The notes under the pieces are model-generated. The model had not been told where the DNA came from. It made no database searches and was given only the letters and a program-made list of their open reading frames with translations. Of a DNA stretch of 64,000 bases, positions 34,207 to 64,000 are shown in pieces. Position 1 is the first letter of the stretch, and each line of letters opens with the position of its first letter. Source of the stretch: Mycolicibacterium tokaiense (GTDB lineage Bacteria > Actinomycetota > Actinomycetes > Mycobacteriales > Mycobacteriaceae); contig NZ_AP022600.1 in NCBI RefSeq assembly GCF_010725885.1, forward strand, positions 5,022,001 through 5,086,000, given 5' to 3'. Position numbers and translations under genes: made by a program.

Positions 34207-34242
34207 GCAGAGATCGTAGCCTGGCAAACATACACAGCGGCG

Positions 34243-47884: not shown

Positions 47885-48691
47885 TTACCTCATCTCCCGG
47901 TGATCAACCTTGTACGACGTCCGGTCACCGCGGTTGTACCGGAACCGCAGTTCGCGGATGCGGCCGTCGATGTCGAACATCAACGTCTCGCACAACAGAA
48001 TCGGTGACCCGGGCGGCACGTGAAGCAGGCTGCTGGTCCGCGGATCACACGGCACCGCTTCCACGCTGTCCTCGGCATGGCTGTACTCGACCCCGAACCG
48101 CTCCCGGAAGATCAGCTCTCGCTCGCCATTGGGTCGCACCGTTGCGTAATCCACATCGGCGCTGACGTATCCGAGCCAGACGTGATGCGGCTCGCCGCGG
48201 ACGGTGATCAGCCGCTCATGCATGAGCACATATTCCTCTTGGGTCTGCATGCGCCGCCGGATGTAGGGAGAGGCGGGAATGACCCGTTCGTCGAGCAGTT
48301 GCTCATCGAACACCTCGGTGGACGTCAGATCGGCGATCAGACCGGAGGTCTGCACCCGGGCCTCGGGATCCAGCTCATTCAGGGTGATCTGCACCATGGC
48401 CGAGGTGATGAAGGTGCCGCTACGCGGATTACGTTCCACCACGCCCTCGTCGGCCAGAAGTTGCAGCGCCACTCGCAGAGCGTTACGACTGGTCGACAGG
48501 GCCTGGACCAACTCGAACTCGACCAGTTGTGTTCCGGCGGGCAGGTAACCGGTCCGGATCGCCGAGCGCAGCAATTCGTACACCCGCCGCGATGAGGTCT
48601 GCAGCGGCGACGGAGCCGCCCGCAGTCCCTGCACAGCATTCACGGTGTGCAGCCTGTCACGGCCGCGCCAGGTTTGCAGGGCGGCGCTCAT
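47885..48691 (-). CDS. GntR/HutC family regulator with UTRA domain
   Basis: The 268-residue protein has a GntR winged helix at about residues 33-100 (VYELLRSAIRTGYLPAGTQLVEFELVQAL in parts, then SRNALRVALQLLADEGVVERNPRSGTF) and a UTRA ligand-binding domain to the C-terminus (EEYVLMHERLITVRGEP, LLCETLMFDIDGRI). Its ATG overlaps the stop of the LLM monooxygenase gene by 4 bp, so it is co-expressed with it and probably controls that operon; effector unknown. It converges on the 13E12 gene with 10 bp between stops. Confidence 0.87.
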   Translation of the reverse strand: MSAALQTWRGRDRLHTVNAVQGLRAAPSPLQTSSRRVYELLRSAIRTGYLPAGTQLVEFELVQALSTSRNALRVALQLLADEGVVERNPRSGTFITSAMVQITLNELDPEARVQTSGLIADLTSTEVFDEQLLDERVIPASPYIRRRMQTQEEYVLMHERLITVRGEPHHVWLGYVSADVDYATVRPNGERELIFRERFGVEYSHAEDSVEAVPCDPRTSSLLHVPPGSPILLCETLMFDIDGRIRELRFRYNRGDRTSYKVDHREMR

Positions 48692-50055
48692 GACGATGCG
48701 CTTCGGAGCTTCAGCGGAATGCCCAGGTTGTCCCTGAGCGTCGTCGCGCTGCCGTAGCCGGTCTTGAACACTCCACGCTGCTGCAGGATCGGCACCACCT
48801 TCTCCACGAAGTCCACGACATTGCGCGGCATGAAGTTGATGATCGAGACCATGAAACCGACGTTGGGACCAGTCTCGGCGTGCAGGTCGCAGATCTGGTC
48901 GGCGATGTCGGTGGCGCTGCCGTAAAGCGTCGGCCCGCCCGCGATCATCGTCTCGCGGCCGAGCTGCTGGAACATCTGCTTGGTCAGCAGACCGCCGGGT
49001 CCGACCATCTCGGCCATCTTGGGCAGATACGCCGTCGATCCGTTGGCCGCTTCGATTGCCGCAGTGGCCTCCTCGATAGTGAAGGTGCCCGGCAGCGTGG
49101 AGAAGTCGAATCCGCTCTTGTGCGCCATGAAGACACCGCCGGCCTCCAACGGAACCGATTCGATCAGCTGTGCCTCGAGTTCCTTCGCGTGTTCGACGTT
49201 CTCACCCATCATCGGGTGCACCGGCCAGAGCACCTGGATCTCCTCCGGGGCCCGGCCCACGTCAGCAAGATGGCGGTCCAGCTCGGCGCGGAACGTCCTC
49301 ATGCCCGCGGCCGAAGGACGGGACACGAACACGATGTCGGCGTTACGTGCGAACGATATGAGACCCCGTGGAGACGCACCGGCTTGGATGAGTGGCGGAT
49401 GGTACTGGGGTGACGGCAGCATGTTCAGGGGACCCTTGACGTCGAAGAACTCGCCGTGATGGTCCAGATAGTGCACTTTGGCCGGGTCTGCGAACACGCC
49501 GGTTCCTGTGTCCAGCAGGATCGCCTCGGGTTCGACGCTACTCCACAGACCTTTGAGTACGTCGATGAACTCATCCGCGCGCTCGTAGCGTCGGTCGTGC
49601 TCCATCAGCTCGTCGAAGCCGAAGTTCGCGGCATCCGACCTGCGAGCCGAGGTCACGAGGTTTACCGCCATCCGTCCGCCTGTCACGTGATCGAGCGAAG
49701 AAACGTGCCGCGCAACGTAGTACGGGTGCATGTAGGTCGGTGAGAAGGTGAGGCCGAAACCGAGGTGTTGGGTCACCCGCGACATCAGGGCAATGGTGGG
49801 GCTCATGTCGTGGCGCGGCCACTGCAGGCCCCACGTGACCGCGGCGTCGATGCTGCCCTCCCAGGTATCGGGGATGCCGACACCGTCCCCGAAGAACACC
49901 ATGTCGATGCAGCCACGCTCGGCCACGCGCGCGACATCCTCCCAGATGGCCGGGTGGGTGTAGTACGGGTAGTTCACCCACGAACCGGGGTTACGCCACG
50001 CCCCCTCGGTGTGGGTGAACGACAGATCGAGCGCCAGCTTGAGCGTGGGGGTCAC
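48688..50055 (-). CDS. LLM class flavin-dependent monooxygenase (NtaA/SnaA type)
   Basis: The 455-residue protein matches the NtaA/SnaA/DszA branch of luciferase-like monooxygenases: SFTHTEGAWRNPGS near the start, WPRHDMSPTIALMS, TFSPTYMHPYYVARH, DHVTGGRMAVNLVTS, GASPRGLISFARNADIVFVS. Such enzymes use FMNH2 from a separate reductase to attack sulfonates, nitrilotriacetate, dibenzothiophene sulfone and similar compounds. GTG 50055 has AAGGA upstream. The coupled GntR gene suggests substrate-inducible expression. No reductase partner is adjacent. Confidence 0.88.
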   Translation of the reverse strand: MTPTLKLALDLSFTHTEGAWRNPGSWVNYPYYTHPAIWEDVARVAERGCIDMVFFGDGVGIPDTWEGSIDAAVTWGLQWPRHDMSPTIALMSRVTQHLGFGLTFSPTYMHPYYVARHVSSLDHVTGGRMAVNLVTSARRSDAANFGFDELMEHDRRYERADEFIDVLKGLWSSVEPEAILLDTGTGVFADPAKVHYLDHHGEFFDVKGPLNMLPSPQYHPPLIQAGASPRGLISFARNADIVFVSRPSAAGMRTFRAELDRHLADVGRAPEEIQVLWPVHPMMGENVEHAKELEAQLIESVPLEAGGVFMAHKSGFDFSTLPGTFTIEEATAAIEAANGSTAYLPKMAEMVGPGGLLTKQMFQQLGRETMIAGGPTLYGSATDIADQICDLHAETGPNVGFMVSIINFMPRNVVDFVEKVVPILQQRGVFKTGYGSATTLRDNLGIPLKLRSASS

Positions 50056-50171
50056 GGCGGGAATCCTTCGGTTGCAGGTCAGTGGAACCGACCCCGAGTT
50101 CAGCCATCCGCCGTGTCAGCCGCGCAACACGCCGGAAAACTCTTGTTTGCGCCGCTTTCTCACACAACCTG

Positions 50172-50218
50172 ACACTGCACCATCACTGCACAACAGCATC
50201 ATTGAGGGCATCACTGCA
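50172..50218. repeat. Three CACTGCA repeats upstream of the LLM-GntR operon
   Basis: The octamers ACACTGCA (50172-50179), TCACTGCA (50183-50190) and TCACTGCA (50211-50218) lie in the gap upstream of the LLM monooxygenase. The latter two are part of a longer repeat CATCACTGCA. Spacings are 11 and 28 bp. They could be regulator half-sites; the last overlaps the stop region of the CoA-transferase gene. Confidence 0.35.
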
Positions 50219-51536
50219 TCTGTTCCGCCACTGGGGACCGGCCACGGGCTGCCCGTTGCGCCGCGGCCAGCAGCTCGTCGCGGAACTCCGGATGGGCGAT
50301 CGCCGCCAGCGCTTCACCGCGCTGCTGGACGGTTTTGCCTTCCAGCTCGGCGGCGCCGTACTCGGTGACGATGACGTCGACGTGGTGCCGCGGGGTGGTG
50401 ATCACCGCACCGGGCCCGAACCAGGGCAGGATCCTCGACCGCAGTTCGCCGTCCCTGGTGAACGTCGACGGCAGACAGATCAGTGACCGGTCTGACAGCT
50501 CCAGGCCGGCGCCCGCCACAAAATCCTCCGCGCCGCCGATACCGCTGAATTGGTCACCATCGATGGTGTCGGCCACCACCTGTCCCTGCACGTCGACCGC
50601 AAGCGCACCATTGATGGAGACCATGTGGTGGTTGGCCGCGATGACCTCCGGGGAGTTGACGATCTCCACCGGAAGGAACACCACCTCGGTGTTGCCGTCC
50701 AACCAGGCGTACAACTCCGGCGATCCGAAGGCGAAGGTCGTCACACTGACCCCGGCGTAGATCCCTTTGTTCGTATTGGTGACTTTGCCGGCCCGGTGCA
50801 GTTGCATGCAGCCGTCTGTGAACATCTCGCTGTGCAGGCCGTACCCGCCACCGTCGCCCTCGGCGAGCTGGGTGGCGATCTGGCTGGGGATCGACCCGAT
50901 CCCGGTCTGCAAGGTCGCCCCGGGTTCGATGAACCCCACCGCATGGCGCGCGATGGCGGTGTCGGCGTCGGTGGGCGGCGGCCCGGGCAGCGACAGCGGG
51001 GTGTCCGTGGAGCGCACCAGGATGTCGATCTCGTCGACGTGCACCGCGTGGCGGTGCTCCCCCGTCCCCACCGTGCGGGGATAGGCGTCCGACACCTCGA
51101 CCACCAGAACCCGGTCGGGATCGGCTCCGGCACGGTGTAATTCGTCGATCGTGCCGCCGGCGTGCAGCGACAGCGAGCACCACCCCTGGTCATCCGGTGG
51201 CGCGGCGACCGTGCTCATCACCCTCGGCGCCTGCCGCTGCAGCAGCGGCCCGAAGCTCCGGAAATCGGCGGGCGTGAAGCCGATGTCGGCTCCACTGTCA
51301 CGCAGCGCGCGCTCCAGGGGGCCGAAGAAGCCCGACAGATAGTGCACACCCGTCCGGCCGAACAACTCCGTGCCCACCGCCAGCAACGCGCCGTACACCC
51401 GCAAGTCGGTCCAGTCGTTGCGCTCACCGAGGGCGCGCAGGAACGCCGGCGGTTGCCCGGGTCCCAGCGGCAGCCCCAGGGTGTCGACGGTGTGCAGCCG
51501 CGCCGCAGCCTGCTGCGCGCTCAGTTCCTCCGGCAT
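50211..51536 (-). CDS. Acetyl-CoA hydrolase/transferase family CoA-transferase
   Basis: The 441-residue protein has the two-domain CoA-transferase layout of the acetyl-CoA hydrolase/4-hydroxybutyrate CoA-transferase family: an N-terminal half with VHYLSGFFGPLE, and a C-terminal half with QTGIGSIPSQIATQL, GLHSEMFTDGCMQL and VITTPRHHVDVIVTEYGAAEL. It moves CoA between acyl groups or hydrolyses acyl-CoA. ATG 51536 is chosen; GTG 51545 is an alternative. It begins 30 bp after the FAAL stop, so it is probably expressed together with the FAAL. Confidence 0.83.
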   Translation of the reverse strand: MPEELSAQQAAARLHTVDTLGLPLGPGQPPAFLRALGERNDWTDLRVYGALLAVGTELFGRTGVHYLSGFFGPLERALRDSGADIGFTPADFRSFGPLLQRQAPRVMSTVAAPPDDQGWCSLSLHAGGTIDELHRAGADPDRVLVVEVSDAYPRTVGTGEHRHAVHVDEIDILVRSTDTPLSLPGPPPTDADTAIARHAVGFIEPGATLQTGIGSIPSQIATQLAEGDGGGYGLHSEMFTDGCMQLHRAGKVTNTNKGIYAGVSVTTFAFGSPELYAWLDGNTEVVFLPVEIVNSPEVIAANHHMVSINGALAVDVQGQVVADTIDGDQFSGIGGAEDFVAGAGLELSDRSLICLPSTFTRDGELRSRILPWFGPGAVITTPRHHVDVIVTEYGAAELEGKTVQQRGEALAAIAHPEFRDELLAAAQRAARGRSPVAEQMQ

Positions 51537-51566
51537 GGTCGCCACCCTGCCATGCCTCGGTCCCCG

Positions 51567-53312
51567 TCAGACGTCGACGCGCGTGAACCCGGTGCCTTCG
51601 TAGTGCGCGACGCAGGCCCGCCTGCGGACCTTGCCGCTGGTGGTGATCGGAATGGAGCCGGGAGCCACCAACACCAGATCGGCGGCCACCAGCCCGTGCG
51701 CATTGGAGATGGCCGAGGTGACCGCACGCCGCAGTTCGGCCACGTACTCGGCGACCTCCTCTGCGGTGTCCCCGCGCTTCTTGACCTCCATCACCACCAC
51801 CAGCTGTTCCACGCCGTCCATCGCGACCGCGATGGCAGCGACCCGACCGCGGGTCAGCTCGGTCACCGTCGACTCGACATCGTCCGGTGCATGGTTGCGG
51901 CCACGGACGATGAGCAGGTCCTTGATCCGTCCGACGATGAAAAGCTCTCCGTCGCAGATGAATCCGAGATCACCGGTGCGCAACCACGGGCCCGATGGGG
52001 TGCCCGCGGCGGGATCGGTGATGGTGGCGCCGAACGTGCGCGCGGTCTCCTCGGGCTTGTGCCAGTAGCCGGCGCTGACGTTGTCGCCGTGCGCCCAGAT
52101 CTCACCGGTGGTCCCGGGCGGACACTCACGCAGGGTGTCGGGATCGACGATCCGTAGCACGGGCGAAATCGCCGACAGCGGGGCTCCGTAGCTGATCAAC
52201 GGCGTGCCGCCAGGTGCCGGGACCGGGTGCCCGGTGGTGAGGCTGTCCTGATCGAAGTGCACGGTCCTCGGGGGTTCACTCGGCGTGCGCGCCGCGAGAT
52301 ACAGAGTCGCTTCGGCCAGTCCGTACGAAGGCTGAATTACGTTGTCCCGCAGATTGAACCGGGCGAATCGCTCGCTGAACCGCGAGATGGTGGCCGGGTG
52401 CACCCGTTCCCCGCCACTCTGGATGAGCAGGACATCGCCGAGGTCCAGTCCGGCCATGTCCTCATCCGAGGTCTTCTTGGCGGCCACGTCGAAGGCGAAG
52501 TTCGGGGCCGAGGTGAACACGTTCGGGTGGCTGGCAGCCAATTGAAGCCAGCGTGCCGGTCGCTGCAGAAAGGACACCGGACTGGTCAACACGGTCGGAA
52601 AGCCGGCCACCACCGGGGTGCAGATTCCGATGATCAGGCCCAGATCGTGATAGAAGGGCAGCCACGACAGGATGGTGGGCGGGGTGATCAGACCGCCGTC
52701 GGCCAAAAAATCGGTGGTGATCTGTTGCAGGTTCGCCAGGACGTTCTGGTAGGAGATCATGACCCCGGCCGGTGCCCGCGTGGATCCCGAGGTGTACTGC
52801 AAGTAGGCCACCGACTGGATGTCGTCGGGCTCGACATCCGCCGCGCCGCCACGGACGGGGGCGTCCAGGTCCAGCGTGTCCACCTCGATCACCGCCAGGG
52901 TCGGCGCTTCGGTGACACTGTGGGCAACCGCTGATGCCACCGCGGAGGTCGTCAACACGGCGGCGGGGGTGGCGTCGCGCAGCACCGACTCGACCCGCTC
53001 GTCGGCGACGCCGCCGAACGGGACGGACAGCGGCACGGGGATCATGCCGGCCTGCAGGGCGCCGAGGAACCCGATGATGTACTCCAGGCCCTGGGGCGCC
53101 ACGATCATCACCCGGTCACCGGGCACGGCGCAGTGTTGCAGTTCGCGCGCCACATTGCGAGCGCGCAGGTACAGCTGCGGCCACGTCAAGCTCAGCGGCA
53201 CCCCCGCCCAATCCAGGTCGTAGTCGACGAAGGTCAGTGCCGTGTCGTCCGGCTGCAGGCTCGCGCGTTCACGCAGCAAGGCCGGGAAAGATGTCTCAAC
53301 CGCCAGTGTCAC
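51567..53312 (-). CDS. Fatty acyl-AMP ligase (FadD-type FAAL)
   Basis: The 581-residue protein is an ANL adenylating enzyme with P-loop LQYTSGSTRAPAG (171-183), NLQQI, LSWLPFYHDLGLI, a segment SGGERVHPATISRF, PSYGLAEATLYLA, WLRTGDLGF and a C-terminal domain with FIVGRIKDLLIVRGRN. HDLGLI and PSYGLAEATL, with length near 580, are typical of mycobacterial FAALs (FadD23/24/32 group), which activate fatty acids as acyl-AMP for transfer to a PKS acyl carrier domain rather than to CoA. It is divergent from the PKS gene. GTG 53312 has TAACTT 7 nt upstream (leaderless). Confidence 0.9.
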   Translation of the reverse strand: MTLAVETSFPALLRERASLQPDDTALTFVDYDLDWAGVPLSLTWPQLYLRARNVARELQHCAVPGDRVMIVAPQGLEYIIGFLGALQAGMIPVPLSVPFGGVADERVESVLRDATPAAVLTTSAVASAVAHSVTEAPTLAVIEVDTLDLDAPVRGGAADVEPDDIQSVAYLQYTSGSTRAPAGVMISYQNVLANLQQITTDFLADGGLITPPTILSWLPFYHDLGLIIGICTPVVAGFPTVLTSPVSFLQRPARWLQLAASHPNVFTSAPNFAFDVAAKKTSDEDMAGLDLGDVLLIQSGGERVHPATISRFSERFARFNLRDNVIQPSYGLAEATLYLAARTPSEPPRTVHFDQDSLTTGHPVPAPGGTPLISYGAPLSAISPVLRIVDPDTLRECPPGTTGEIWAHGDNVSAGYWHKPEETARTFGATITDPAAGTPSGPWLRTGDLGFICDGELFIVGRIKDLLIVRGRNHAPDDVESTVTELTRGRVAAIAVAMDGVEQLVVVMEVKKRGDTAEEVAEYVAELRRAVTSAISNAHGLVAADLVLVAPGSIPITTSGKVRRRACVAHYEGTGFTRVDV

Positions 53313-53494
53313 GCGAAGGAAGTTACAGCAGCCGCGAAGGCTGCATCAGCGAAAACAGAACGAAAAGTGAAGTTCAGCCACTAATCTGCGTCTGCGTCAG
53401 TCACATAAGTGAATGGAAGATATGCACTGGGTCGGGGGACTCCAGCGCGTGAGTCGGACGGCGGGAAGCGTCGCTGTCGTGAGGAGTCGGGTTG
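53313..53494. promoter_or_regulatory. Divergent FAAL/PKS promoter region with palindrome
   Basis: This 182-bp gap separates the FAAL and PKS genes. It holds TAACTT (53325 to 53320, minus) for the FAAL, a possible plus-strand -10 TAATCT (53382-53387), and the palindrome TCAC-ATAA-GTGA at 53401-53412. The ribosome-binding site GAGGAG (53481-53486) belongs to the PKS. The 53340-53420 part is clearly lower in GC than its surroundings. Confidence 0.45.
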
Positions 53495-56400
53495 GTGTCG
53501 ATCGATGCGGTCGGTGGTCCGGTGGAGCTCCGCGAAGCGGTGGACCCGCACGTCACGGCAGGCACCGCTGTCGCCGTCATCGGCATGGGTTGCCGGCTGC
53601 CGCGCGGTATCGACTCCCCCGAAGCGTTCTGGGCGGCGTTGCTGCGCGGCGACGATCTGGTCACCGATGTGCCTTCGGAGCGCTGGAATTCCGACGACTT
53701 CTACGACCCCGAACCCGGAGTGCCCGGCCGAACCCGATCGCGGTGGGGTGCTTTCCTCGACGACGTCACCGGATTCGACCCCGACTTCTTCGGCCTCAAC
53801 GAGCAGGAAGCAGCGGCCATGGATCCGCAGCACCGGCTCCTGCTGGAGACCTCGTGGGAGGCGATGGAACACGCCGGCCTGACGCCGACGGCCGTGTCCG
53901 GGTCCCGCACCGGCGTCTTCACCGGCCTCACCCACTACGACTACCAGATGATCAACGGCGCATCGGAGGCGATGCAGGGCCCATATGGCTTTCAGGGCAA
54001 CACCTTTGCGATGGCCCCCGGACGCATCGCCCACCTGCTGGGACTGCACGGCCCCGCGGTGGCGGTCGACACCGCCTGCTCGTCCGGACTGATGGCCGTA
54101 CACCTGGCGTGCCGCAGCTTGGCCGATGGCGAGAGCGACATGGCCTTCGCCGGCGGCGCCTACGTGATGCTGGACCCCCGCAAGTACGTCGCCGGTACTG
54201 CTGCCGGTCACCTGTCCCCCACCGGACGCTGCCGGGCGTTCGACGCGGCCGCCGACGGGTACGTCAGCGGTGAGGGCGCCGCGGTGTTCCTGCTCAAGCG
54301 CCTGACGGACGCGGTGGCCGCCGGTGATCGGATCCTGGCCGTGCTGCGCGGATCGGCGGCCAATCAGGACGGCCACACCGTCAACATCTCCACACCGTCG
54401 GTCACCGCGCAGAGCGCCGTCTACCGCCGCGCCCTGGCCGCCGCCGGCGTGGACCCGGCCACAGTCGGCATGGTCGAGGCGCACGGGCCCGGCACTCCGG
54501 TGGGCGATCCCATCGAGTACACCAGTCTGAGCACGGTCTACGGCACCGCCGGCCCCTGCGCACTGACGTCGGTGAAGACGAACCTCGGCCACGCCCAATC
54601 CGCGTCCGGAGCGCTCGGCCTCGTCAAGGCCGTCCTCGCTGTGCAGCACGCCACAGTGCCGCAGAACCTGCACTTCACCCACCTGCCGAAAGCCCTGGCC
54701 GGCATCGAGACCAATCTGTTTGTGCCACAGACCAACACGGCATGGCCCGGTGATCCCGACCAGCCCCGCCGCGCCGCGGTGTCCTCCTACGGTGTCTCGG
54801 GCACCAACGTGCACGCCATCGTCGAACAGGCCCCGGCGTCCGCGCCTTCGCGCACGGACACCCCTGCCGGCGCGCTGCTGTTCCCGCTGTCGGCCGGCAC
54901 GCCCGAGGACCTGCGCCGCAGCGCGGGCCGGCTGGCGGACTGGGTGACGGCACACGACGACGTGCACCTGTCCGACCTGGGCTACACCCTGGCCCGCAGG
55001 CGGGTGTTCCACCCCGTGCGCACCGCGGTCATCGCAGCCACCCGATCCGAGCTCGGCCACCGGCTGCGGGAGATCGCGGCCGCAGAGCTGCCGTATCCGG
55101 CCGCGGTGGGCGCAGATGACCGGGGACCGGTCTGGGTGTTCTCCGGTCAGGGTTCGCAATGGGAAGCGATGGGCGCGGATCTGCTTGCGACCGAGCCGGT
55201 TTTCGCTGCCACCATCGCGCAACTGGAGCCGCTGATCGCCGCGGAGTCGGGATTCTCCGTCACCGCAGCGCTGACTGCTCCCGAGGTGGTGACCGGTATC
55301 GACCGGATCCAGCCCAGTGTGTTCGCCATGCAGGTGGGATTGGCCGCCGCCCTGCGGTCCCACGGTATCCACCCTGCCGCGGTGATCGGTCATTCCATGG
55401 GGGAAACGGCCGCGGCGGCGGTGTCCGGCGCGCTGTCGCTCGAGGACGCGGTCCGCGTGATCTGCCGGCGCTCGCGGCTGATGGCGCGGATCTCCGGATC
55501 GGGGACCATGGCCGCCGTGGATCTGCCTGCCAAACAGGTACTTTCGGAACTCACCATCAACGGCATCAAGGATGTGGTGGTGGCGGTGGTGGCGTCACCG
55601 CAGTCCACGGTGATCGGTGGAGCTACTGCAACGGTGCAGCAGCTGGTGCAGTCCTGGGAGCAGCGTGACGTCATGGCACGTCCGGTCGCTGTGGACGTGG
55701 CCTCCCATTCCCCGCAGGTCGATCCGATCCTGCCCGAGCTCACCGAGGCGCTGGCCGATGTCGTCGCGCGGACACCCGAGCTCCCCTTCTACACCGCCAC
55801 CGGGTTTGATCCCCGCGAACAGCCGGTGTGCGACGCCAAGTACTGGGTGCGCAATCTGCGTAACACCGTCCGCTTCGCCGCTGCGGTGCGGGCCGCGCTG
55901 GAGGACGGCTTCCGGGTGTTCGCCGAACTCGCCCCGCACCCCTTGCTCATCCACGCCGTCGAACAGACCGCTGCCGGCATCGACGCCCCGCTGGCGATGC
56001 CGGCCGTCCTGCGCCGTGGGGTGGAGCTGCCCCAGGGCCTGCGCGGTGTGGTCGCCGATCTGCACGCAGCGGGCGCAGCAGTGGATTTCGCCGCGATGTA
56101 CCCGCACGGGCACCTGGTGGACGCGCCGCTGCCCACCTGGTCACGGCGCCCGCTACGGCTCGCGCCAACCGCTGACGGCGCTGCCACCCGGGGCGGGCGC
56201 AACCTGGCGGTCCATCCTCTCCTGGGTCCGCATGTGCCGTTGCACGAAGAGCCCCGGCGTCACGTCTGGCGGTCCGAGCTCGGCACCACCGCCTCACCGT
56301 GGCTCGCCGACCACTGCGTCCGTGACGTGCCCGTGCTGCCCGCCGCCGCGTACTGCGAAATGGCAGTGTCGGCAGCCCGGACGGTCTTCGGACCGGGAGC

Positions 56401-59400
56401 GGAGGCGACCGACCTGCGATTCGATCGGGCACTGTTGCTCGACGGACACATCGAAGCCGGTGTCTCGGCCACGGACTCCGGCCCGGATACGGCGGACTTC
56501 TGCGTCGAGTCCGAGCAGAACGGCGAACGTATCCGCCATGCCGGCGCCGTGTTGCGCCGCTGTGGTGCGGAAGCTCCTGCCCGCTACGACATCGCAGCGC
56601 TGCGCGGTGCACACCCCCACACGGTCGACGGCGCCGACGTGCGCGCCGGGCTGGCGGCGCGCGGCGTCCGCTATGGCGCCGCCTTCACCGGACTCGCGGT
56701 CGCCCATGTCGGGGAGGGCGCCACCGGTTCGGTTCTGGCCGAAGTCGCGCTGCCGGGCCGGCTGCGCGCACAATCGGCCGGCTACGGCGTGCATCCGGCG
56801 CTGCTGGACGCGTGTTTTCAGACCATCGGCGCCAGCTTGCACGTACGCGCGCTCGGCGGCGACGTGCTGGGACTGCCGCTGACCGTACGCCGGATCCAGA
56901 CCTTCGACCAGACCCGCACCGCGCAGTTCTGCTACACCCGGGTCACCGCTGTCGACGGCACCGGTGTCGAAGCTGATCTCGACCTCCTCGATCACGACGG
57001 GGTGGTGCTGCTGCGGGTGCAGGGACTGTGGTGCGGCTCCGCCACCTCCGGAGACAGTCACCGTGACAGGGTGCTGGCCGAGCGGCTGCTGACCGTGCAA
57101 TGGCACCCACGTCAACCGCCTTCGGGCACCGGCGCGCAGACCTGGCTGCTGGTGGACACTGCCGACACCGTGAGCGCCACCGCCACCGACCTGGCCGGCG
57201 CCCTGCAGGATCTCGGCGGGACGGGCTCACTCCTGAACTGGCCCCGCGGCGGTGATCACGGGCAGTGCACCGCGCGGTTCACCGAACTCCTGCGCACCGG
57301 CGGGGTCGCCGGTGTCGCCGTCTTGACGGCGGACGACGATGATGACCCAGCATTCTCGCCGCAGTCCGGGCGGGACACCGTGGCCCATCTCATCCGCGTC
57401 GCCCGTGAACTGACCGGGCTACCGGGTGAGCTGCCTGCGCTGGCGGTGCTCAGCCGCCATGCCCAGACGGTGCTGCCGGGCGACGGGATCGACCTGTCCC
57501 AGGGCGGGCTGCGGGGGCTGATCCGGGTGATCGGGGTCGAGCATCCCCACCTGCGTGTGCACCACATCGATCTCGACTTCACCACGGCACCCGCACTGGT
57601 GGCCGCCGAGTTGCTCAGCGACTCCCCCGAAGACGAAACAGCGTGGCGGGACGGCAACTGGTACGCCGCACGCCTGCAGAGTTCCCCGCTGCGTCCCGAT
57701 GAGCGGCACCACGTCGTGGTCGACCATCAGCGCGACGCGATGCGACTGCAGATCCGCAACCCCGGTGACCTCCAGACATTGGAACCCGTTGCACTCCAGC
57801 GGATGTCACCGGGCCCCGGCCAGATCGAGGTGGCAGTCACCGTCTCGAGCATCAACTTCGCCGACGTGCTGGTGGCCATGGGTCTGTTCCCCAGCATTGA
57901 CGGCGAACTCCCCGAGTTGGGCATGGACTACGCGGGGGTGGTCACCGCCGTCGGCCCCGGCGTCGCCCACCTGAGCGTCGGTGACCGGGTGGGTGGTTTT
58001 TCACCGAACGGGTGCTGGGGGACTTTCGTGGCCTGTGACGCCGACCTCGCTGTTGCGCTGCCCGACCACCTGTCCGACCACGCCGCCGCCGCCGTGGCCA
58101 CCGCCACCGCCACCGCGTGGTACGGCCTGCACACCCAGGCCCGCATCACTGCCGAGGACAAGGTGCTCATCCACTCGGCCACCGGCGGGGTGGGCCAGGC
58201 TGCCATCGCCATCGCCCGCGCCGCCGGGGCACAGATCTTCGCCACCGCGGGTAGCGAGTCACGGCGACAGATGTTGCGCGACATGGGTATCGATCATGTC
58301 TACGACTCACGCAGCACGGAGTTCGCCGACCAGATCCGCCGCGACACCGCCGGCTACGGGGTGGACATCGTGCTCAACTCGCTGACCGGGGCTGCGCAGC
58401 GCGCCGGTCTCGAGCTGCTGGCCGACGGCGGACGATTCGTCGAGATCGGCAAGCGCGATGTCTACGGCAACACCCGGCTGGGCCTGTTCCCGTTCCGGCG
58501 CAACCTCACGTTCTTCTATCTGGATCTGGCTCTGATGTCACGCAGCCATCCGCGGCGGGTGGCCGAACTGCTGCGCACCGTCTTCCGCCTCGCCGCCGCC
58601 GGCGAGCTACCGCCCACCCAGTTCACCGTCCACCCCCTCACCGATGCCGCGCAGGCCATCCGAACCATGGGCGCCGCACAACACACCGGCAAGTTGTTGC
58701 TCGAGGTCGGGCGCACCGCAACCACATCGGCGGTGGTCGAACCCGCTGCAGCACCGGTGTTCCGCAGCGACGGCGCTTACCTGGTGACCGGTGGCCTCGG
58801 GGGTCTCGGTCTGTTCTTCGCCGAGAAGCTGGTCGCGGCGGGTTGTGGTCGCATCGTGCTCACGTCCCGTTCGCAACCGAGCATCAGGGACCTGGAAACC
58901 ATCGAGATGATCCGGGAGATGGGCGGCGACGTGCAGGTGTACTGCGGCGATATCACCCGGCCCGACACCGTAGAGGGCATGCTCGCGGTCGCGACCGCGA
59001 CCGGGCTCCCGGTCCGGGGCGTCCTACACGCGGCCGCGGTGGTCGACGATGCCATGCTGGGCAGCATCACCGACGAGCTGCTGGAGCGCGACTGGGCGCC
59101 GAAGGTGCACGGCGCGTGGAACCTGCACGTCGGCACCAGCGCAGCGCCGCTGGACTGGTTCTGCTGCTTCTCCTCCGCCGCCGCCCTGGTGGGCTCCCCC
59201 GGGCAGGGCGCCTACGCGGCGGCCAACAGCTGGCTGGACGGTTTCACCCGCTGGCGCCGAGCCGCGGGCCTGCCCGCGACCTCGATCGCCTGGGGAGCGT
59301 GGGGGCAGATCGGGCGGGCCACCGACTTCGCCGAGAACCACGGCGCAGCCATCGATCCGGAGGACGGCGCCCACGCTTTCGACGCGCTGCTGCGCCACGA

Positions 59401-59797
59401 CCGTTCCTATACGGGATATTCACCGATGCTCGGCAGTTCCTGGCTGACGGCCTTCGCGGCGCGCAGCCCGTTCGCGGAGGCTTTCCGCGCAGAAACCCGC
59501 AGCGGCGCAGACAACACCGGGCTTCGTGATGAGCTCGGACGGCTGGCGCCCGAGGAACGACCGGGCCGGATCCGCAGGCTGATCTCCGAGCAGATCAACG
59601 TGATCCTGCGTCGCAGCGTGGATCCCGACCGCCCGTTGTCGGAATACGGGGTGGATTCCCTCGGTGCACTGGAACTGCGCACCCGGATCGAGGCCGAGAC
59701 CGGGGTGCGGCTCGCATCCGGTGATCTCGCCGTGGGCACCGTCCGTGGTCTGGCCGAACTCCTGTGCGAAAAGCTGGTGGCCTCAGACGTGGGCTGA
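53495..59797 (+). CDS. Type I polyketide synthase, mycocerosate-synthase-like (KS-AT-DH-ER-KR-ACP)
   Basis: The 2100-residue enzyme carries one full reducing module. KS: about 25-450, nucleophile Cys195 (DTACSSG), [22 protein letters not shown]: about 540-840, Ser634 (GHSMGET), with VASH at the specificity position, resembling the methylmalonyl YASH motif. DH: about 890-1180, His940 and [12 protein letters not shown]: about 1440-1740 (TGGVGQAA). KR: about 1755-1940 ([14 protein letters not shown]). ACP: Ser2055 (GVDSLGAL). Layout and length match mycobacterial Mas/Pks2/Pks5, iterative synthases of methyl-branched acids. GTG 53495 has GAGGAG 8 nt upstream; TTG 53492 is the alternative. The DH reads HCVRD where HxxxG is usual. 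Confidence 0.9.
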
Positions 59798-59799
59798 GG

Positions 59800-60474
59800 T
59801 CACCACAGACACGGCAACAGGCGGTAGCGCACCCGGCGGCTGTAGGCGCAGTAGCCGGCGAGTTCGTCTCGCAGCAGCGTCTCCTCGTCACGAATCCGGG
59901 AGACCAGCACCAGGACACCGGGTGCCACGAACAGCAGCGCCCAATAGGAACCGAGCGCCGGCGGCGTGCCCACCAGCATCAGCACGTTACCGAAGTACAT
60001 GGGGTGGCGCACCACCGCATACAGACCGGTGGATACCACCTGCTGACCGGCCTCCACCTGCACGGTGGTGGAGGCGTAGGTGTTCTGCACCGCCACCAGC
60101 ACCACCATCGCGAGCCCGGCGGCCACCACCGCCGCACCGAGCACGCTCACCGCTGCCGGCACCGACGACCAGCCGAAGCGGTGGTCGAGCGCGCTCACCA
60201 CACACATCGCAGCCAACGACCCGTACAGCACCGCCATCACGACCTTCTGCACGGTCCTGGCTTCGGCCACCGGACCACCGCGCATCCGTCGTTGCAACGC
60301 AGCAGGTCTGGCCATCTGGACGTACACGCTCGGCAGCCACGCCGCGCAGGCGAACACCGCCAGGAACATCCAGGCCTGCCAGTAGTGAACAGTCCAGGAC
60401 GGCAGGAACAGCGCGCCGGCGATGGCGACGAACTGAACGAACCCTGCGAGGGCAACGCTGCCCACTGCTTTCAC
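59800..60474 (-). CDS. Isoprenylcysteine carboxyl methyltransferase-like membrane protein
   Basis: The 224-residue protein has five or more transmembrane helices and the C-terminal isoprenylcysteine methyltransferase/PEMT motif: TGLYAVVRHPMYFGNVLMLVGTPPALGS (in parts) and RIRDEETLLRDELAGYCAY, with RHPMY and the acidic EE pair. Members use S-adenosylmethionine to methylate a carboxyl, phosphate or amine in lipids. GTG 60474 overlaps the stop of the PF10118 gene by 4 bp, so it belongs to the NRPS operon and probably tailors a lipid product. It converges on the PKS gene with 2 bp between stops. Confidence 0.82.
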   Translation of the reverse strand: MKAVGSVALAGFVQFVAIAGALFLPSWTVHYWQAWMFLAVFACAAWLPSVYVQMARPAALQRRMRGGPVAEARTVQKVVMAVLYGSLAAMCVVSALDHRFGWSSVPAAVSVLGAAVVAAGLAMVVLVAVQNTYASTTVQVEAGQQVVSTGLYAVVRHPMYFGNVLMLVGTPPALGSYWALLFVAPGVLVLVSRIRDEETLLRDELAGYCAYSRRVRYRLLPCLW

Positions 60475-61418
60475 GAGTCTCCCCGCTGTGCTCTGGTGTA
60501 CCACCGCGTCACGTCCTGCCCGGCGTCGTAGCGCGCCAACCATTCGGCAGCCAGCGCGGGGAGGTCCTGGTACTGGGGGTTGTGCCCGGGGAACTGGCTG
60601 CGCAGCACCCCGTATGCGGCGGCGAGTTTCTCCCGCAACCGCACGTGCGGGTAGACCCTTCCCACGGGCCCGTAGTCCGGCACGTGAAGTCCGAGGAGGC
60701 CGCAGACTCTCGGAAAGTGCTTCGCTGCAGCCTTTTTCCAGCCCGGACCGCCCGACATGGAGGTGGCATCAACCAGGCGGTGGGTCAACGGCACCAGCCG
60801 GTTGAAGTCATCGGCGGCCTGCGCCATCACCGCCCCGGCGTGGGCGAACACCGACGGGGCCACGCGCAGGCGGTACCACCGGTCGGCCACCACCGCGTCG
60901 TAGATGAGCAGCGCCGAGCTACGGTGCTCGATCTCCTCCACAAAATGCCACAGGAACAGCGATGCCACCCGGTCGTCACCGCCGGCGAAGAGGGTGTCGG
61001 CGTTGTCGAGCATCAGTTTGAAGGAGGGGGTGAAGGTCGCCTCGACATCGGCGGTGTAGGCCAGCCGGTACTTCAGTGGTGTGGTCGCCACGAGCCGGTC
61101 GTAGGAGGCGATCACGTCGCTGAAGGTCTGCGCCAGCGCGGGGTGGCCGGCGATCAGCGCCTTGACATGCTGACGGTGGGCCAGACTGTGTTGCGCCTCC
61201 TGGCGCATGAAGGTCCGCGCTTCCTGCGCGACCGCCGGTTCGGCGATCAGTGGCAATGCCTCGGTGACGGTGGCGACGATCATCTTCTCGAATCCGATGG
61301 CCAGGAATGACAGTGCATTGGCCGCACTCGAGAACGCCGGATTGTGCTGGTTCCAGGCGAACGGAACCGCCGGGTCGGAGAATCCGAAACGCATCTTGCG
61401 CACCGACAGCTCGGTCAC
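60471..61418 (-). CDS. PF10118-type predicted metal-dependent hydrolase
   Basis: The 315-residue all-helical protein matches the PF10118 family of predicted metal-dependent hydrolases: ANALSFLAIGFEKMIV near the start, FMRQEAQHSLAHRQH, YTADVEATFTPS and WHFVEEIEHRSSALLIYD. The EAQH, E and EEIEHR residues form a ferritin-like di-metal site. Function in this family is not firmly established; oxygenase or hydrolase chemistry is possible. GTG 61418 overlaps the NRPS stop by 4 bp and its own stop is overlapped by the methyltransferase gene. It is therefore a candidate tailoring enzyme of the peptide or lipopeptide product. Confidence 0.82.
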   Translation of the reverse strand: MTELSVRKMRFGFSDPAVPFAWNQHNPAFSSAANALSFLAIGFEKMIVATVTEALPLIAEPAVAQEARTFMRQEAQHSLAHRQHVKALIAGHPALAQTFSDVIASYDRLVATTPLKYRLAYTADVEATFTPSFKLMLDNADTLFAGGDDRVASLFLWHFVEEIEHRSSALLIYDAVVADRWYRLRVAPSVFAHAGAVMAQAADDFNRLVPLTHRLVDATSMSGGPGWKKAAAKHFPRVCGLLGLHVPDYGPVGRVYPHVRLREKLAAAYGVLRSQFPGHNPQYQDLPALAAEWLARYDAGQDVTRWYTRAQRGDS

Positions 61419-64000
61419 GGCCGTTCCCGGCCACCGGATTCGGGACTGCCGACCTGCCGGCTCAGACCGTGCACGGTGGGGGTCTGCAGCACCGCCGCAA
61501 CGGTCAATTGGCAACCGAGTGCCTCGTTGATGAGCCCCACCAGCCGCAACGCCGACAGTGAGTCGCCACCCAGGGCGAAGAACGCGTCGTCGATGCCGAC
61601 CCGCTGGATCTCGAGAACCTGCGTGTAGAGCTCGGCGAGGCGCTGCTCGACCGCAGTGGTCGGGGCGCGGTACTCCGGCGCCGGTGGTGCCTGCGGCGGC
61701 CGCGGCGGTGTCCAGGGCCCGGGCGGCAGCTGCGCCGGCTGCAGGGGCTGCACCGGATCGGCCACCATAGCGGTCAGCGTCTGCGTGAACCCGTCGAGCA
61801 GTGCTGCGACACTCTCCGCGTCGAACACGTCGGTGCGGTATTGGACGCGTAGCTCCACCTGATCCCCGGGCACCGCCTGCACCGTCAGCGGGTAGTGATA
61901 GGTGTCCTTGGCTGTGATGTCCGTGATGGTCAGACCGGCGGCGCTGTGCGCGGTGTCCGCCGGGTAGTTCTCGTAGACGAACGCGGTATCGAACAATCGG
62001 GAATGTCCGGTGGCGCGCTGGATTTCGCCCAGCCCGAGGTGTTCGTGCTCGAGTGTCTGGTTGCGGCGGTGATGCAACTGGGTGAGCAGTTCGACGGTGC
62101 TGGTGGTGGGGCTGAAGGTGGCTCGCACCGGAACGGTGTTGATCAGCAGGCCCACCATGGCGTCGGCGCCGGGCAGGTCGTCGGGCCTGCCGGACACCAC
62201 GGCGCCGAAGGCCACCTCGGAGTGTCCGGTCAGCGAGCGGAGCAGGTGTGCGAAAGCGGCCTGCAGGACAGTGCTGACGGTGGTGCGGCAGGCACGCGCG
62301 AGCTCGACGACCGCGCGGGTGGTCTGCTCGGACACCCTTGTGGAGGTGACGTGACGCGGACCCACCTCGAGAGGATCCTGTGGCCCGACCAGGGTGGGTG
62401 TATCGAAGCCGGAGAGCGCCTGTGTCCACGCCTGCCGGGCCGCGGTGATGTCGCGCTCGGCGAGCCAGCTCAGGAATCTGCGATAGGGCACGGGGGCGGG
62501 TAGCCGCTGGCCGTAGTACCCGGCGAAGACCTCGGCCAGCAGCACCGGCAGCGACCAACCGTCCAGCAGCAGGTGATGGTTGGTCAGCACGAAGCGGTGC
62601 CGGTCCGGCGCGATCCGCAGCAGAGCTGCCCGGATCAGCATCTCCTCCGCCGAGTCGCACACCGCATTGCGTTCCGCTGCGCAGAGTTTGGCGATCTGCT
62701 CGTCGAGGTCGAAGTCATGGCCGGTGAGATCGAGATACTGCCAGGGCACCTCGGGTTGCGCCGGGACCACCTGGACCGGTTCGCCGAAGCGGGTGCAGAA
62801 CGTGGCGGCCAGATTGGGGTGCCGTTGCAGGGTGGCCTGGATGGCCTCCCTCATGCGGTGCTGGTCGAGGTGTCCGTTCACGGTGATCTCCAGCTGGACG
62901 GCGTACACGTCGTCGCCGGAGGTGCGGCCCAGCTCGGCGTGGAACAGCAGCCCCTGCTGCAGCGGTGTCAGGGGCAGGATGTCAGCCACCTGCTGCCGGC
63001 TGCAGAGGTCGTCGATCTGGTGTTGGGTCAACCGCGCCGGTGCAATGTCCGAAGGGGTCAGTCCCCCGCCGCCCCCGCGCACGTGGGCGCAGATCCCGGC
63101 CAGGGCGTCGAACCACAGCTGGCTGAGTCGGTTCACTTCGGCGTGGCCCAGCGCCGACGGCGCCCAGGTCCAGCCGGCTCGCAGCCGTGGGCCGGCGTCG
63201 GTGTCGACGGTGCCCGCGTTCAGTTCGACGGTGTGCATCAGCGGCATCGGGATGGCGGCCGCGGCACCGGTCACCGCCCACCCGTCGGGGCGGATCTCCC
63301 AGATGTCGCCGGACACGTCTGTCGCACCCGCACCGAGCCGGCCGAGGTAGTTGAAGCCGATCACCGGGTCGGGTCCGTCGAGGTCGACGTCGTCGTTGAG
63401 GTAACGCAGCAGTCCGTAGGTCAGCCCGTCCGGTTGGGCGCGCAGTTGTTCCTTGAGGTTCTTGATCACCGACCCCAGACCTGCACCCCCGGTACTCACC
63501 TGCGTCCAATCCAGATTGCTGATGTTCAGTGCCACCGGGTATTTGGTGGTGAACCAGCCCACGGTGCGGGACAAGTCGATGTCGTCACCCAGCCCGGGGA
63601 GATCGTCGTGGCGACCGTGGCCTTCGGCGTCGATGACCAGCGAGCCGGTGCCCAGGAATTCGCGCAGTGCCATCGCGTAGGCGATCATCAGGATGTCGTT
63701 GATGCCGGTGTGGAAGGCGGCCGGGACCTCACCCAAGAGCAGCCGGGTGGTCTCCACATCCAGCTCCACCGACAGGCTCCCTGCGGTGGCGTAGGTATCG
63801 GTGGCGGGAGAGACCGCCGGCAGGGGCACGGGTAGCGCCCTGGTCTGCTGCCAGTGCGGGGTTTGGGCAAGCACCTCGGGTCGGCGGGCGTATTCGGTGA
63901 GCAGCGCGGCCCAGCGGGCGAAGGACGTGCCAGGTTCCGGAAGGACGATCGGTTGCCCGCTGGATCGCTGGGCCCAGGCCAGGTTGATGTCTTCGAGCAG
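61415..64000 (-). CDS. Nonribosomal peptide synthetase, C-terminal part (E-C-PCP), cut by window edge
   Basis: The visible 861 residues are the C-terminus of a larger NRPS whose start lies beyond 64000. Residues 1-335 are an epimerisation domain (EDINLAW, DAEGHGRHDD, TVGWFTTKYPV, FNYLGRLG). Residues 350-770 are a condensation domain with LPLTPLQQGLLFHAE, the catalytic HHLLLDG near 475 and GRPDDLPGADAMVGLLINTVP. A Pro-rich linker leads straight to a peptidyl carrier domain with GGDSLSALRL (Ser near 813), and the protein ends about 45 residues later. The last module has no adenylation domain, and there is no thioesterase or reductase. It is the head of a coupled operon with the PF10118 and methyltransferase-like genes. 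Confidence 0.88.
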   Translation of the reverse strand: MLEDINLAWAQRSSGQPIVLPEPGTSFARWAALLTEYARRPEVLAQTPHWQQTRALPVPLPAVSPATDTYATAGSLSVELDVETTRLLLGEVPAAFHTGINDILMIAYAMALREFLGTGSLVIDAEGHGRHDDLPGLGDDIDLSRTVGWFTTKYPVALNISNLDWTQVSTGGAGLGSVIKNLKEQLRAQPDGLTYGLLRYLNDDVDLDGPDPVIGFNYLGRLGAGATDVSGDIWEIRPDGWAVTGAAAAIPMPLMHTVELNAGTVDTDAGPRLRAGWTWAPSALGHAEVNRLSQLWFDALAGICAHVRGGGGGLTPSDIAPARLTQHQIDDLCSRQQVADILPLTPLQQGLLFHAELGRTSGDDVYAVQLEITVNGHLDQHRMREAIQATLQRHPNLAATFCTRFGEPVQVVPAQPEVPWQYLDLTGHDFDLDEQIAKLCAAERNAVCDSAEEMLIRAALLRIAPDRHRFVLTNHHLLLDGWSLPVLLAEVFAGYYGQRLPAPVPYRRFLSWLAERDITAARQAWTQALSGFDTPTLVGPQDPLEVGPRHVTSTRVSEQTTRAVVELARACRTTVSTVLQAAFAHLLRSLTGHSEVAFGAVVSGRPDDLPGADAMVGLLINTVPVRATFSPTTSTVELLTQLHHRRNQTLEHEHLGLGEIQRATGHSRLFDTAFVYENYPADTAHSAAGLTITDITAKDTYHYPLTVQAVPGDQVELRVQYRTDVFDAESVAALLDGFTQTLTAMVADPVQPLQPAQLPPGPWTPPRPPQAPPAPEYRAPTTAVEQRLAELYTQVLEIQRVGIDDAFFALGGDSLSALRLVGLINEALGCQLTVAAVLQTPTVHGLSRQVGSPESGGRERP

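What the first reader, a model, noticed from the sequence alone, without database searches (positions are those of the whole stretch)
51567..64000. Hybrid locus: FAAL, iterative PKS and an NRPS operon with PF10118 and methyltransferase-like tailoring genes
A FAAL and a mycocerosate-synthase-like PKS are divergent, the usual way to make methyl-branched acids from a free fatty acid starter. An NRPS operon converges on the PKS with 2 bp between stops and carries a di-metal PF10118 protein and an isoprenylcysteine-methyltransferase-like membrane protein, all coupled by GTGA overlaps. A CoA-transferase follows the FAAL by 30 bp. I see no papA, mmpL or glycosyltransferase gene of the known TPP, LOS or GPL loci in the visible part. 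The set points to an undescribed methyl-branched lipopeptide.
Basis: partly seen in the sequence, partly recalled or inferred. Interest (0 to 1): 0.72.

Follow-up and report, generated by a model that had tools for sequence, protein, structure and literature searches.

The report
Edge of a glycosylated lipopeptide cluster
The window ends inside a large, widely shared mycobacterial gene cluster that most likely makes an uncharacterised sugar-decorated lipopeptide for the cell surface, built with a polyunsaturated-fatty-acid-type lipid synthase, a polyketide synthase and a peptide synthetase.

Summary
The genes are real and nearly as described, but the window shows only the left 12 kb of a cluster of about 80 kb. 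To the right lie the rest of a four-module NRPS, MbtH, three glycosyltransferases, a rhamnosyl O-methyltransferase, membrane acyltransferases, a dTDP-rhamnose gene set, MmpS/MmpL/MmpL and a PUFA-type synthase (PfaA/C/D). A core of about 20 of these genes, in largely conserved order, was found in 11 of 11 relatives. Best reading: a glycosylated lipopeptide that works like glycopeptidolipid (GPL) but is not GPL: D-Thr-like, X, Y, D-Thr-like, ending in an A-domain-less C-T pair without reductase or thioesterase. The acyl chain probably comes from Pfa synthase, FAAL and the Pks2-type PKS. Clusters of this kind were listed in 2026 for two strains (PMC13291983, clade IV), product unknown. The CoA-transferase is not part of it (0 of 11). 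PF10118, a predicted ferritin-like di-metal protein, is an accessory. Methyl branching is plausible here but not general: 5 of 12 cluster PKSs have Asn where the acyltransferase His is expected. New variant of a known kind; no product or enzyme activity is shown.

The parts
51567..53312 (-). Fatty acyl-AMP ligase (FAAL), FadD28-like; left edge of the conserved cluster
   Evidence: NF004509 886.7 bits over cut-off 775; orthologue beside the PKS in 11 of 11 relatives
53492..59797 (+). Monomodular Pks2/Mas-type PKS: KS-AT-DH-ER-KR-ACP
   Evidence: Pfam domains; NF041183 3289.9 bits over cut-off 2400; KS DTACSS, AT GHSMG and VASH, ACP GVDSL present
59800..60474 (-). ICMT-like membrane methyltransferase (start GTG 60474; the longest ORF runs to 60543)
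   Evidence: PF04140 48.3 bits over 24; NCBIfam isopcys_mtase 47.7 bits, below its cut-off of 160; between PKS and NRPS1 in 12 of 12 clusters
60471..61418 (-). PF10118 protein, predicted ferritin-like di-metal-carboxylate enzyme; accessory
61415..64000 (-). C-terminal part of NRPS1 (whole gene 61415-73891, 4158 aa: C-A-T-C-A-T-C-A-T-E-C-T); the window holds roughly the last E-C-T of it
   Evidence: A-less terminal C-T in 12 of 12 clusters

Best explanation
A conserved biosynthetic supercluster for a glycosylated, acylated short peptide of the mycobacterial envelope, working like the GPL pathway but with a different lipid source and chain end. Proposed steps: (1) PfaA/PfaC/PfaD make a long, probably unsaturated acyl chain [inferred from families]. 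(2) FAAL adenylates it and loads it on the PKS ACP [family knowledge, not shown]. (3) The Pks2-type PKS extends it, in this genome probably with methylmalonyl units [inferred]. (4) The first C domain of NRPS2 moves the acyl chain to the first residue [inferred]. (5) NRPS2 and NRPS1 build D-Thr(-like), X, Y, D-Thr(-like) [domain order and E domains shown; residues predicted]. (6) The chain reaches the A-less C-T end; release is by that pair with the stand-alone condensation-type protein at 102043-103539 (outside the window), the end then being capped as a methyl ester by the ICMT-like enzyme [speculative]. (7) Glycosyltransferases add rhamnose-type sugars, methylated and in some species acylated by Rmt, TylF and AT3 enzymes [family-based]. 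(8) MmpS/MmpL/MmpL export it [by analogy with GPL]. PF10118 adds an optional O2-dependent oxidation [speculative].
For: Flank gene content. In 11 of 11 relatives FAAL, PKS, ICMT, NRPS1, NRPS2, MbtH, GTa, DUF2505, epimerase, UDP-sugar dehydrogenase, GTb, GMC, GFO, GTc, the stand-alone condensation-type gene, MmpS, both MmpL and PfaC were found in the stretch fetched; PfaD in 9, and in the other two (G097, G141) just past its end. Six relatives were chosen by PF10118 similarity, five by the ICMT gene. Genes right of 131505 are not shared (0, 1 and 0 of 11), nor is the CoA-transferase, so both edges are sharp. Cluster-type ICMT in 24 of 198 genus genomes (own included), 23 of them with PfaD over cut-off, against 17 of the other 174 (Fisher p 2.8e-18, relatedness not corrected). 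A-domain code pattern nearly identical in 7 of 7 genomes, two entries incomplete; a Thr-like pair in 11 of 12. A1/A4 85% and E1/E4 91% identical. Condensation/PapA5-type fold with invariant HxxxDG for the stand-alone protein.
Against: No product is known and I have no expression data. A2 and A3 codes (DVCSVALVHK, DFWSLGAVYK) are not assigned. Five relatives have Asn at the AT His position and one (G009) has Ala for the KS Cys, so PKS extension cannot be general. In G049 the Pfa genes lie on the FAAL side, not the MmpL side. 17 genomes have PfaD without the ICMT gene at 62% identity or more, though at least G097 of these has the cluster. Sugar decoration varies: Rmt in 8 of 11 relatives and AT3 genes in 6 of 11; Rmt over its cut-off in 14 of the 24 genomes. 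ICMT is only family-level evidence for a methyl ester.
Confidence: 0.6

Rival explanations
1. Two acyl chains: FAAL plus PKS make the N-acyl chain, while the Pfa chain is put on a sugar or Thr hydroxyl by the AT3 acyltransferases or the stand-alone condensation-type protein.
For: Three AT3-SGNH genes and an HxxxDG acyltransferase in the cluster. The M. abscessus lipooctapeptide GL8P carries both an N-terminal stearyl and a putative hydroxylated lauric acid on rhamnose (PMC11978893, section 12).
Against: FAAL and PKS need a starter and no other dedicated source is in the cluster. AT3 genes were not detected in 5 of 11 relatives (G049, G082, G014, G098, G139), while Pfa stays; the stand-alone protein, however, is in 11 of 11.
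Confidence: 0.2
2. Two independent neighbouring pathways: a glycosylated FAAL/PKS/NRPS lipopeptide and an unrelated Pfa lipid.
For: Pfa position relative to the NRPS is not fixed (G049). 17 genomes have PfaD without the cluster-type ICMT at 62% or more.
Against: 23 of 24 co-occurrence. Another group also grouped Pfa, PKS and NRPS in two strains (PMC13291983).
Confidence: 0.12
3. It is the classical GPL locus or the GL8P locus in rearranged form.
For: MbtH, two NRPS genes, glycosyltransferases, Rmt, epimerase, rml genes and MmpS/MmpL/MmpL are shared in kind.
Against: E domains at positions 1 and 4 only, not D-D-D-alaninol; no reductase or thioesterase family in either NRPS; four A domains, not eight.
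Confidence: 0.03
4. One reading: a methyl-branched lipopeptide made by FAAL, PKS and NRPS alone, without sugars, with the CoA-transferase.
For: FAAL, PKS and NRPS adjacency and the VASH motif, shared with a Mas-like PKS of G029.
Against: Sugar-type, export and Pfa genes travel with it in the 11 relatives examined; CoA-transferase in 0 of 11.
Confidence: 0.05

Closest known systems
[quoted passage not shown] fortunisiensis TNTM28 and Mycolicibacterium sp. CBMA 234 (PMC13291983, abstract and section 7 read in full)
   Same: Pfa-like genes, monomodular PKS, CoA-ligase (here FAAL) gene, NRPS with TIGR01720, ICMT gene between PKS and NRPS. TNTM28 (L045, G049) has the same cluster here, and the 20 kb held of CBMA 234 (L061) shares NRPS, MbtH, GT, AT3 and PF10118 parts.
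   Different: That section does not mention glycosyltransferases, rhamnose genes, Rmt, MmpS/MmpL, PF10118, the A-less C-T end, or spread beyond two strains and a few relatives; it calls the region between PKS-NRPS and pfa genes poorly conserved. Its supplement could not be read.
Glycopeptidolipid (GPL) locus of M. smegmatis, M. abscessus and M. chelonae (PMC1885439, abstract, section 6 and passages)
   Same: MbtH + two NRPS genes, gtf, rmt, acetyltransferase, rmlA/rmlB, MmpS4/MmpL4a/MmpL4b kinds of genes; an epimerase gene too (PMC11549994, passages).
   Different: Different NRPS order and chain end; Pfa synthase, Pks2-type PKS, FAAL and ICMT in place of the GPL lipid genes; UDP-sugar dehydrogenase, GMC and GFO oxidoreductases added.
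GL8P second GPL-like locus of M. abscessus (PMC11978893, abstract, sections 6 and 12)
   Same: A non-GPL glycosylated lipopeptide locus with MbtH, MmpL/MmpS, glycosyltransferases; its peptide begins and ends with Thr.
   Different: Octapeptide from eight modules with an annotated thioesterase; no Pfa synthase in the genes that section 6 lists (a fatty-acid CoA ligase is listed).
Pks2/Mas with FadD FAAL (SL-1 and DIM pathways)
   Same: PKS scores over the Pks2 family cut-off; FAAL scores 812 bits on the FadD28 model, below its cut-off of 1100.
   Different: Coupled to an NRPS; several cluster orthologues have an altered AT or KS residue.

Membership tests
Clade IV Pfa-PKS-NRPS clusters (PMC13291983) | pfa-like genes | tested here: met
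   TIGR02813 1237 bits and TIGR02814 597 bits, over cut-offs 1010 and 449
Clade IV Pfa-PKS-NRPS clusters (PMC13291983) | monomodular PKS plus ligase gene, ICMT gene between PKS and NRPS | tested here: met
Clade IV Pfa-PKS-NRPS clusters (PMC13291983) | NRPS module ending in TIGR01720 | tested here: met
   NRPS2 residues 1352-1508, 102.9 bits over 74.2
Clade IV Pfa-PKS-NRPS clusters (PMC13291983) | PfaA KS domain falls in clade IV of their tree | not tested
   no tree was built; PfaA of TNTM28 is 66-70% identical in pieces
[quoted passage not shown]
   C-A-T-E / C-A-T-C-A-T-C-A-T-E-C-T; no reductase family in the Pfam scan of either protein. That alaninol needs a terminal reductase domain is recalled
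GPL locus | Glycosyltransferases, rhamnosyl O-methyltransferase, rml genes, MmpS/MmpL pair | tested here: met
   by family, not by orthology to the GPL genes
GPL locus | gap export gene | not tested
   no gap reference was at hand
GL8P locus | Eight-module NRPS pair with thioesterase | tested here: not met
   four A domains, no thioesterase family hit
Iterative Mas/Pks2 methyl-branching synthase | Sequence over the Pks2 family cut-off and intact KS, AT, ACP residues | tested here: met
   window copy intact
Iterative Mas/Pks2 methyl-branching synthase | Iterative use of methylmalonyl-CoA | not testable with these tools
   needs enzymology
Ferritin/R2-like di-metal carboxylate proteins (PF10118 protein) | Two E plus ExxH ligand sets on a four-helix bundle | tested here: inconclusive
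PapA5/condensation superfamily (protein 102043-103539) | Condensation-type fold with HxxxDG | tested here: met
   Foldseek best E 2.3e-15, PapA5 1q9j at 4.8e-13; H143, D147 and G148 invariant in 42 sequences. Pfam and NCBIfam gave no family for the window-genome protein; PF03007 is noted for some homologues

The most novel reading that the evidence does not exclude
A new class of mycobacterial surface glycolipopeptide, common among environmental Mycolicibacterium, whose acyl tail is made by a PUFA-type synthase and whose peptide leaves an A-domain-less C-T terminus through a stand-alone condensation enzyme and a carboxyl methyltransferase instead of a reductase or thioesterase; it would be the GPL equivalent of species that lack GPL.
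Probability: 0.3. Interest if true: 0.72.

Novelty: new variant of a known kind. Interest (0 to 1): 0.5.

Why it matters
Surface glycolipopeptides shape colony form and immune recognition in mycobacteria (GPL and GL8P papers cited). The cluster-type ICMT gene occurs in 24 of 198 sampled genomes of the genus, the window's own included, yet I found no product in print. If the reading holds, it joins PUFA-type lipid synthesis to GPL-like chemistry and offers a clear test of how an NRPS ending in C-T releases its chain. It also moves attention from a 12 kb 'methyl-branched lipopeptide locus' to an 80 kb unit with sharp edges that can be tested by single gene removals in environmental species.

Tried and rejected
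Considered and rejected: CoA-transferase 50211-51545 as a member (0 of 11 relatives). PF10118 as a core gene: not found in the stretches of G082, G014, G098, G139 and G141, and about 60% identical copies lie away from this NRPS in other genomes, for example L028, L030 and L032 (3.9 kb loci). PF10118 as a hydrolase: ligand pattern and fold lean to a di-metal oxygenase-like bundle, unproven. A second GPL locus in this genome: one Rmt only; condensation domains in three places, seven of 13 in this cluster, the others not followed. No Rfam match at gathering score and no tRNA in the window. Sequence search of PF10118 against the PDB gave nothing useful. G068, G029, G121, G057, G074, G145 and G185, fetched as hoped-for GPL references, were not clear classical GPL loci: G068 has the sugar and MmpL genes with a 3667 aa PKS and is cut by its contig end inside an NRPS2-like gene; G029 and G074 look like DIM/PGL-type loci with a Mas-like PKS; G057 shows Rmt and PKS pieces; G121, G145 and G185 are related GPL-like NRPS loci. 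Classical mps1/mps2 sequences were therefore never compared directly.

My motif rule called the last domain of NRPS2 'C' instead of 'E' in G135, G009 and G139; by full-length homology they match the epimerase-ended protein, but I did not check them otherwise. The A-domain codes were read by motif position with GrsA numbering recalled; 'Thr-like' for DFWSVGMVHK is recalled, not from a call. That the VASH-type motif holds the AT active-site His, that ICMT is a carboxyl methyltransferase family, and enacyloxin-type release by a stand-alone C domain are recalled too; a structure so titled is among the fold hits.

Papers: PMC13291983 abstract, outline and all of section 7; PMC1885439 abstract, section 6 and passages; PMC11549994 abstract start in a listing and passages; PMC11978893 abstract, sections 6 and 12, passages; PMC7261415 passages; PMC8103206 listing and one passage. 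Statements that no product is in print rest on searches (open-licence PMC only), and on 48 for PF10118. Supplements (figure S7 of PMC13291983, Data S1 of PMC11978893) were not open to me and may hold more.

Full report
Place. The window is G000:C1:5022001-5086000 of a single 6.33 Mb mycobacterial contig. I fetched the right flank to window-equivalent coordinate 164000; coordinates above 64000 below are outside the window.

What is in the window. FAAL 51567-53312(-), PKS 53492-59797(+) with KS-AT-DH-ER-KR-ACP, ICMT-like 59800-60474(-), PF10118 60471-61418(-), and the end of NRPS1 from 61415(-) are confirmed by Pfam and NCBIfam and by direct reading of junctions. Both GTGA overlaps and the 2 bp between PKS and ICMT stops are real; the FAAL/CoA-transferase gap is 21 bp.

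What the window cannot show. NRPS1 runs to 73891 (4158 aa) and NRPS2 is 73878-78425 (1515 aa), followed by MbtH 78447-78677. Then come: glycosyltransferases 78815-80092, 92689-94029 and 99498-100811; methyltransferases 80109-81083 and TylF 98490-99308; DUF2505 81058-81561; three AT3-SGNH acyltransferases 81562-88082; a sugar epimerase/dehydratase 88096-89175; a UDP-glucose/GDP-mannose dehydrogenase 90230-91615; rhamnosyl O-methyltransferase 91868-92692 (NF045824, 431.7 bits over 400); GMC 94112-95821; GFO/IDH 97484-98509; a weak sulfotransferase match 100848-101828; a stand-alone HxxxDG protein 102043-103539; an MFS gene 103561-105063; MmpS 105510-106118; two MmpL 106028-111907; PfaC 111909-118793, PfaA 118154-124366, PfaD 124305-126047 (TIGR02813 and TIGR02814 over cut-off); and rmlA-, rmlB- and rmlCD-like genes 128168-131505. 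Starts are of the longest ORFs.

Conservation. I first took PF10118-like loci: 185 of 198 genus genomes have some match, so PF10118 alone says little. Six relatives were fetched at length: G056 (length fits Mycobacterium sp. MS1601), G009 (M. litorale F4), G135 (sp. EPa45), G171 (M. sarraceniae), G049 (M. fortunisiensis TNTM28), G097 (M. anyangense). Five more, picked from the ICMT search because no close PF10118 match lay beside the ICMT gene, were G082 (M. aurum), G014 (sp. S2-37), G098 (M. parafortuitum), G139 and G141. Counts over these 11 (tblastn 70 bits or more, each place given to its best query): 11 of 11 for FAAL, PKS, ICMT, NRPS1, NRPS2, MbtH, first, second and third glycosyltransferase, DUF2505, epimerase, UDP-sugar dehydrogenase, GMC, GFO, stand-alone condensation-type gene, MmpS, both MmpL and PfaC; PfaA 10, PfaD 9 (the two missing lie past the stretch); MT24 and TylF 10; rmlA and rmlCD 9 (the other two stretches end before or without them); Rmt 8; sulfotransferase-like 7; an AT3 gene 6; PF10118 6; MFS 6. 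CoA-transferase 0; genes right of 131505: 0, 1 and 0. So both edges are sharp, and decoration genes vary. Order is largely kept; in G049 the Pfa genes are on the FAAL side, and in G009, G135, G171 and G097 the rml genes lie between MmpL and PfaC. ICMT lies between PKS and NRPS1 in 12 of 12, on the PKS strand in 10 and on the NRPS strand in 2 (window, G056). In G049 PF10118 sits beside DUF2505.

Spread and co-occurrence. An ICMT gene at 62% identity or more (E at or below 1e-90) is in 24 of 198 genomes, own included. PfaD over its cut-off is in 40 of 198. They overlap in 23 of 24; the exception, G126, is a 520-contig draft. Outside, PfaD is in 17 of 174 (Fisher p 2.8e-18, not corrected for relatedness). 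Rmt over cut-off is in 14 of the 24. The identity limit is mine; G097 has the cluster at 59%, and G058 has a 65% match to the NRPS end, PfaD and a weaker ICMT, so 24 is a low count.

NRPS. Order C-A-T-E / C-A-T-C-A-T-C-A-T-E-C-T. The A-less C-T end is in 12 of 12 clusters. G121 has the same domain order fused in one 5675 aa ORF, beside a second, larger NRPS, and G145, with more modules, also ends in C-T. The last C domain keeps HHLLLDG and its T domain GGDSL. C2 and C5, both after an E domain, are 56% identical, C3 and C4 60%. A codes: DFWSVGMVHK, DVCSVALVHK, DFWSLGAVYK, DFWSVGMVHK; the same or nearly the same in 7 of 7 genomes (two entries incomplete), with an additional DVQSIGAVDK module in G135 and G009. 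An A-T-E-C block of 4.4 kb is repeated at 84% DNA identity between the first and fourth modules, 79-98% per 300 bases through A-T-E and 66-69% in C, as expected from gene conversion between modules that insert the same residue. In G056 and G009 the NRPS1 frame is split at the A4/T4 border.

PKS. In the window copy the KS Cys, AT Ser and His, and ACP Ser motifs are intact. The AT motif [10 protein letters not shown] is the same as in a Mas-like PKS of G029, so methyl branching is plausible here. But at this His five clusters (G082, G014, G098, G139, G141) have Asn; G135 and G009 keep His in a changed motif; and G009 has DSAASS in place of DTACSS at the KS. The five are also those without PF10118; being probably close kin and picked for that lack, they may count as one event. 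Their PKS may be fed in trans or may not extend at all.

Mechanism. Shown: gene order, domain order, conservation, co-occurrence. Inferred: Pfa chain to FAAL to PKS to first C domain; D-Thr-like at positions 1 and 4; sugars and export as in GPL. Speculative: release through C-T plus the stand-alone condensation protein, methyl ester by ICMT, oxidation by PF10118. A C-terminal methyl ester is known in the L5P lipopeptide of M. avium subsp. paratuberculosis (PMC8103206, one passage), which makes the idea reasonable, no more.

Known relatives. PMC13291983 lists TNTM28 and CBMA 234 as clade IV triple hybrids, with an ICMT gene between PKS and NRPS; L045 and L061 here are from those strains. So the core idea is in print since June 2026. 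New here, as far as my searches go, are the sugar/export half, the wide spread, the constant C-T end and A-code pattern, the sharp edges, and the PF10118 and AT variation. GPL (PMC1885439) and GL8P (PMC11978893) are the closest characterised products; defining NRPS features of both were tested and not met.

Verdict. Interest 0.5: a widespread, uncharacterised glycolipopeptide-type cluster with an unusual NRPS end, already partly catalogued.

Noticed in passing
PKS AT domain in G082, G014, G098, G139, G141 (L175-L196); PKS KS domain in G009 (L134): Asn in place of the expected AT His in five cluster PKSs, and Ala in place of the KS Cys in G009. Suggests the PKS is not a self-sufficient extender in those species.
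   Followed up: partly
window-equivalent 72762-77105 against 61863-66223 (mostly outside the window): 4.4 kb of A-T-E-C DNA repeated at 84% identity between first and fourth NRPS modules, with 300-base steps up to 98%: concerted evolution.
   Followed up: partly
59800-61418: The ICMT gene (with PF10118) is turned round in the window and G056 relative to 10 of 12 clusters, which creates the GTGA-coupled operon.
   Followed up: yes
L171-L174 (G121), L202-L205 (G145), L206-L209 (G185): Other GPL-like NRPS loci with the same kinds of sugar genes; G121 and G145 also end in C-T, and an ICMT gene adjoins the NRPS in G145 and possibly G185.
   Followed up: partly
89176-90229 (outside the window): All 11 relatives have an epimerase-like gene (about 30% like the cluster rmlB) beside the UDP-sugar dehydrogenase; at this place the window genome shows no long ORF on that strand.
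   Followed up: no
126486-128171 and 95845-97305 (outside the window): A secreted-looking repeat protein without Pfam family, found in 9 of 11 relatives, and a glycine-rich PGRS-like ORF found in 1 of 11.
   Followed up: no
47885-51545: GntR/UTRA regulator, luciferase-like monooxygenase and acetyl-CoA hydrolase/transferase left of the FAAL; only the last was tested for conservation with the cluster (0 of 11).
   Followed up: partly
window 32425-34227 and 24512-26344: GGDEF-EAL protein and a GH130-family protein in the left part of the window.
   Followed up: no
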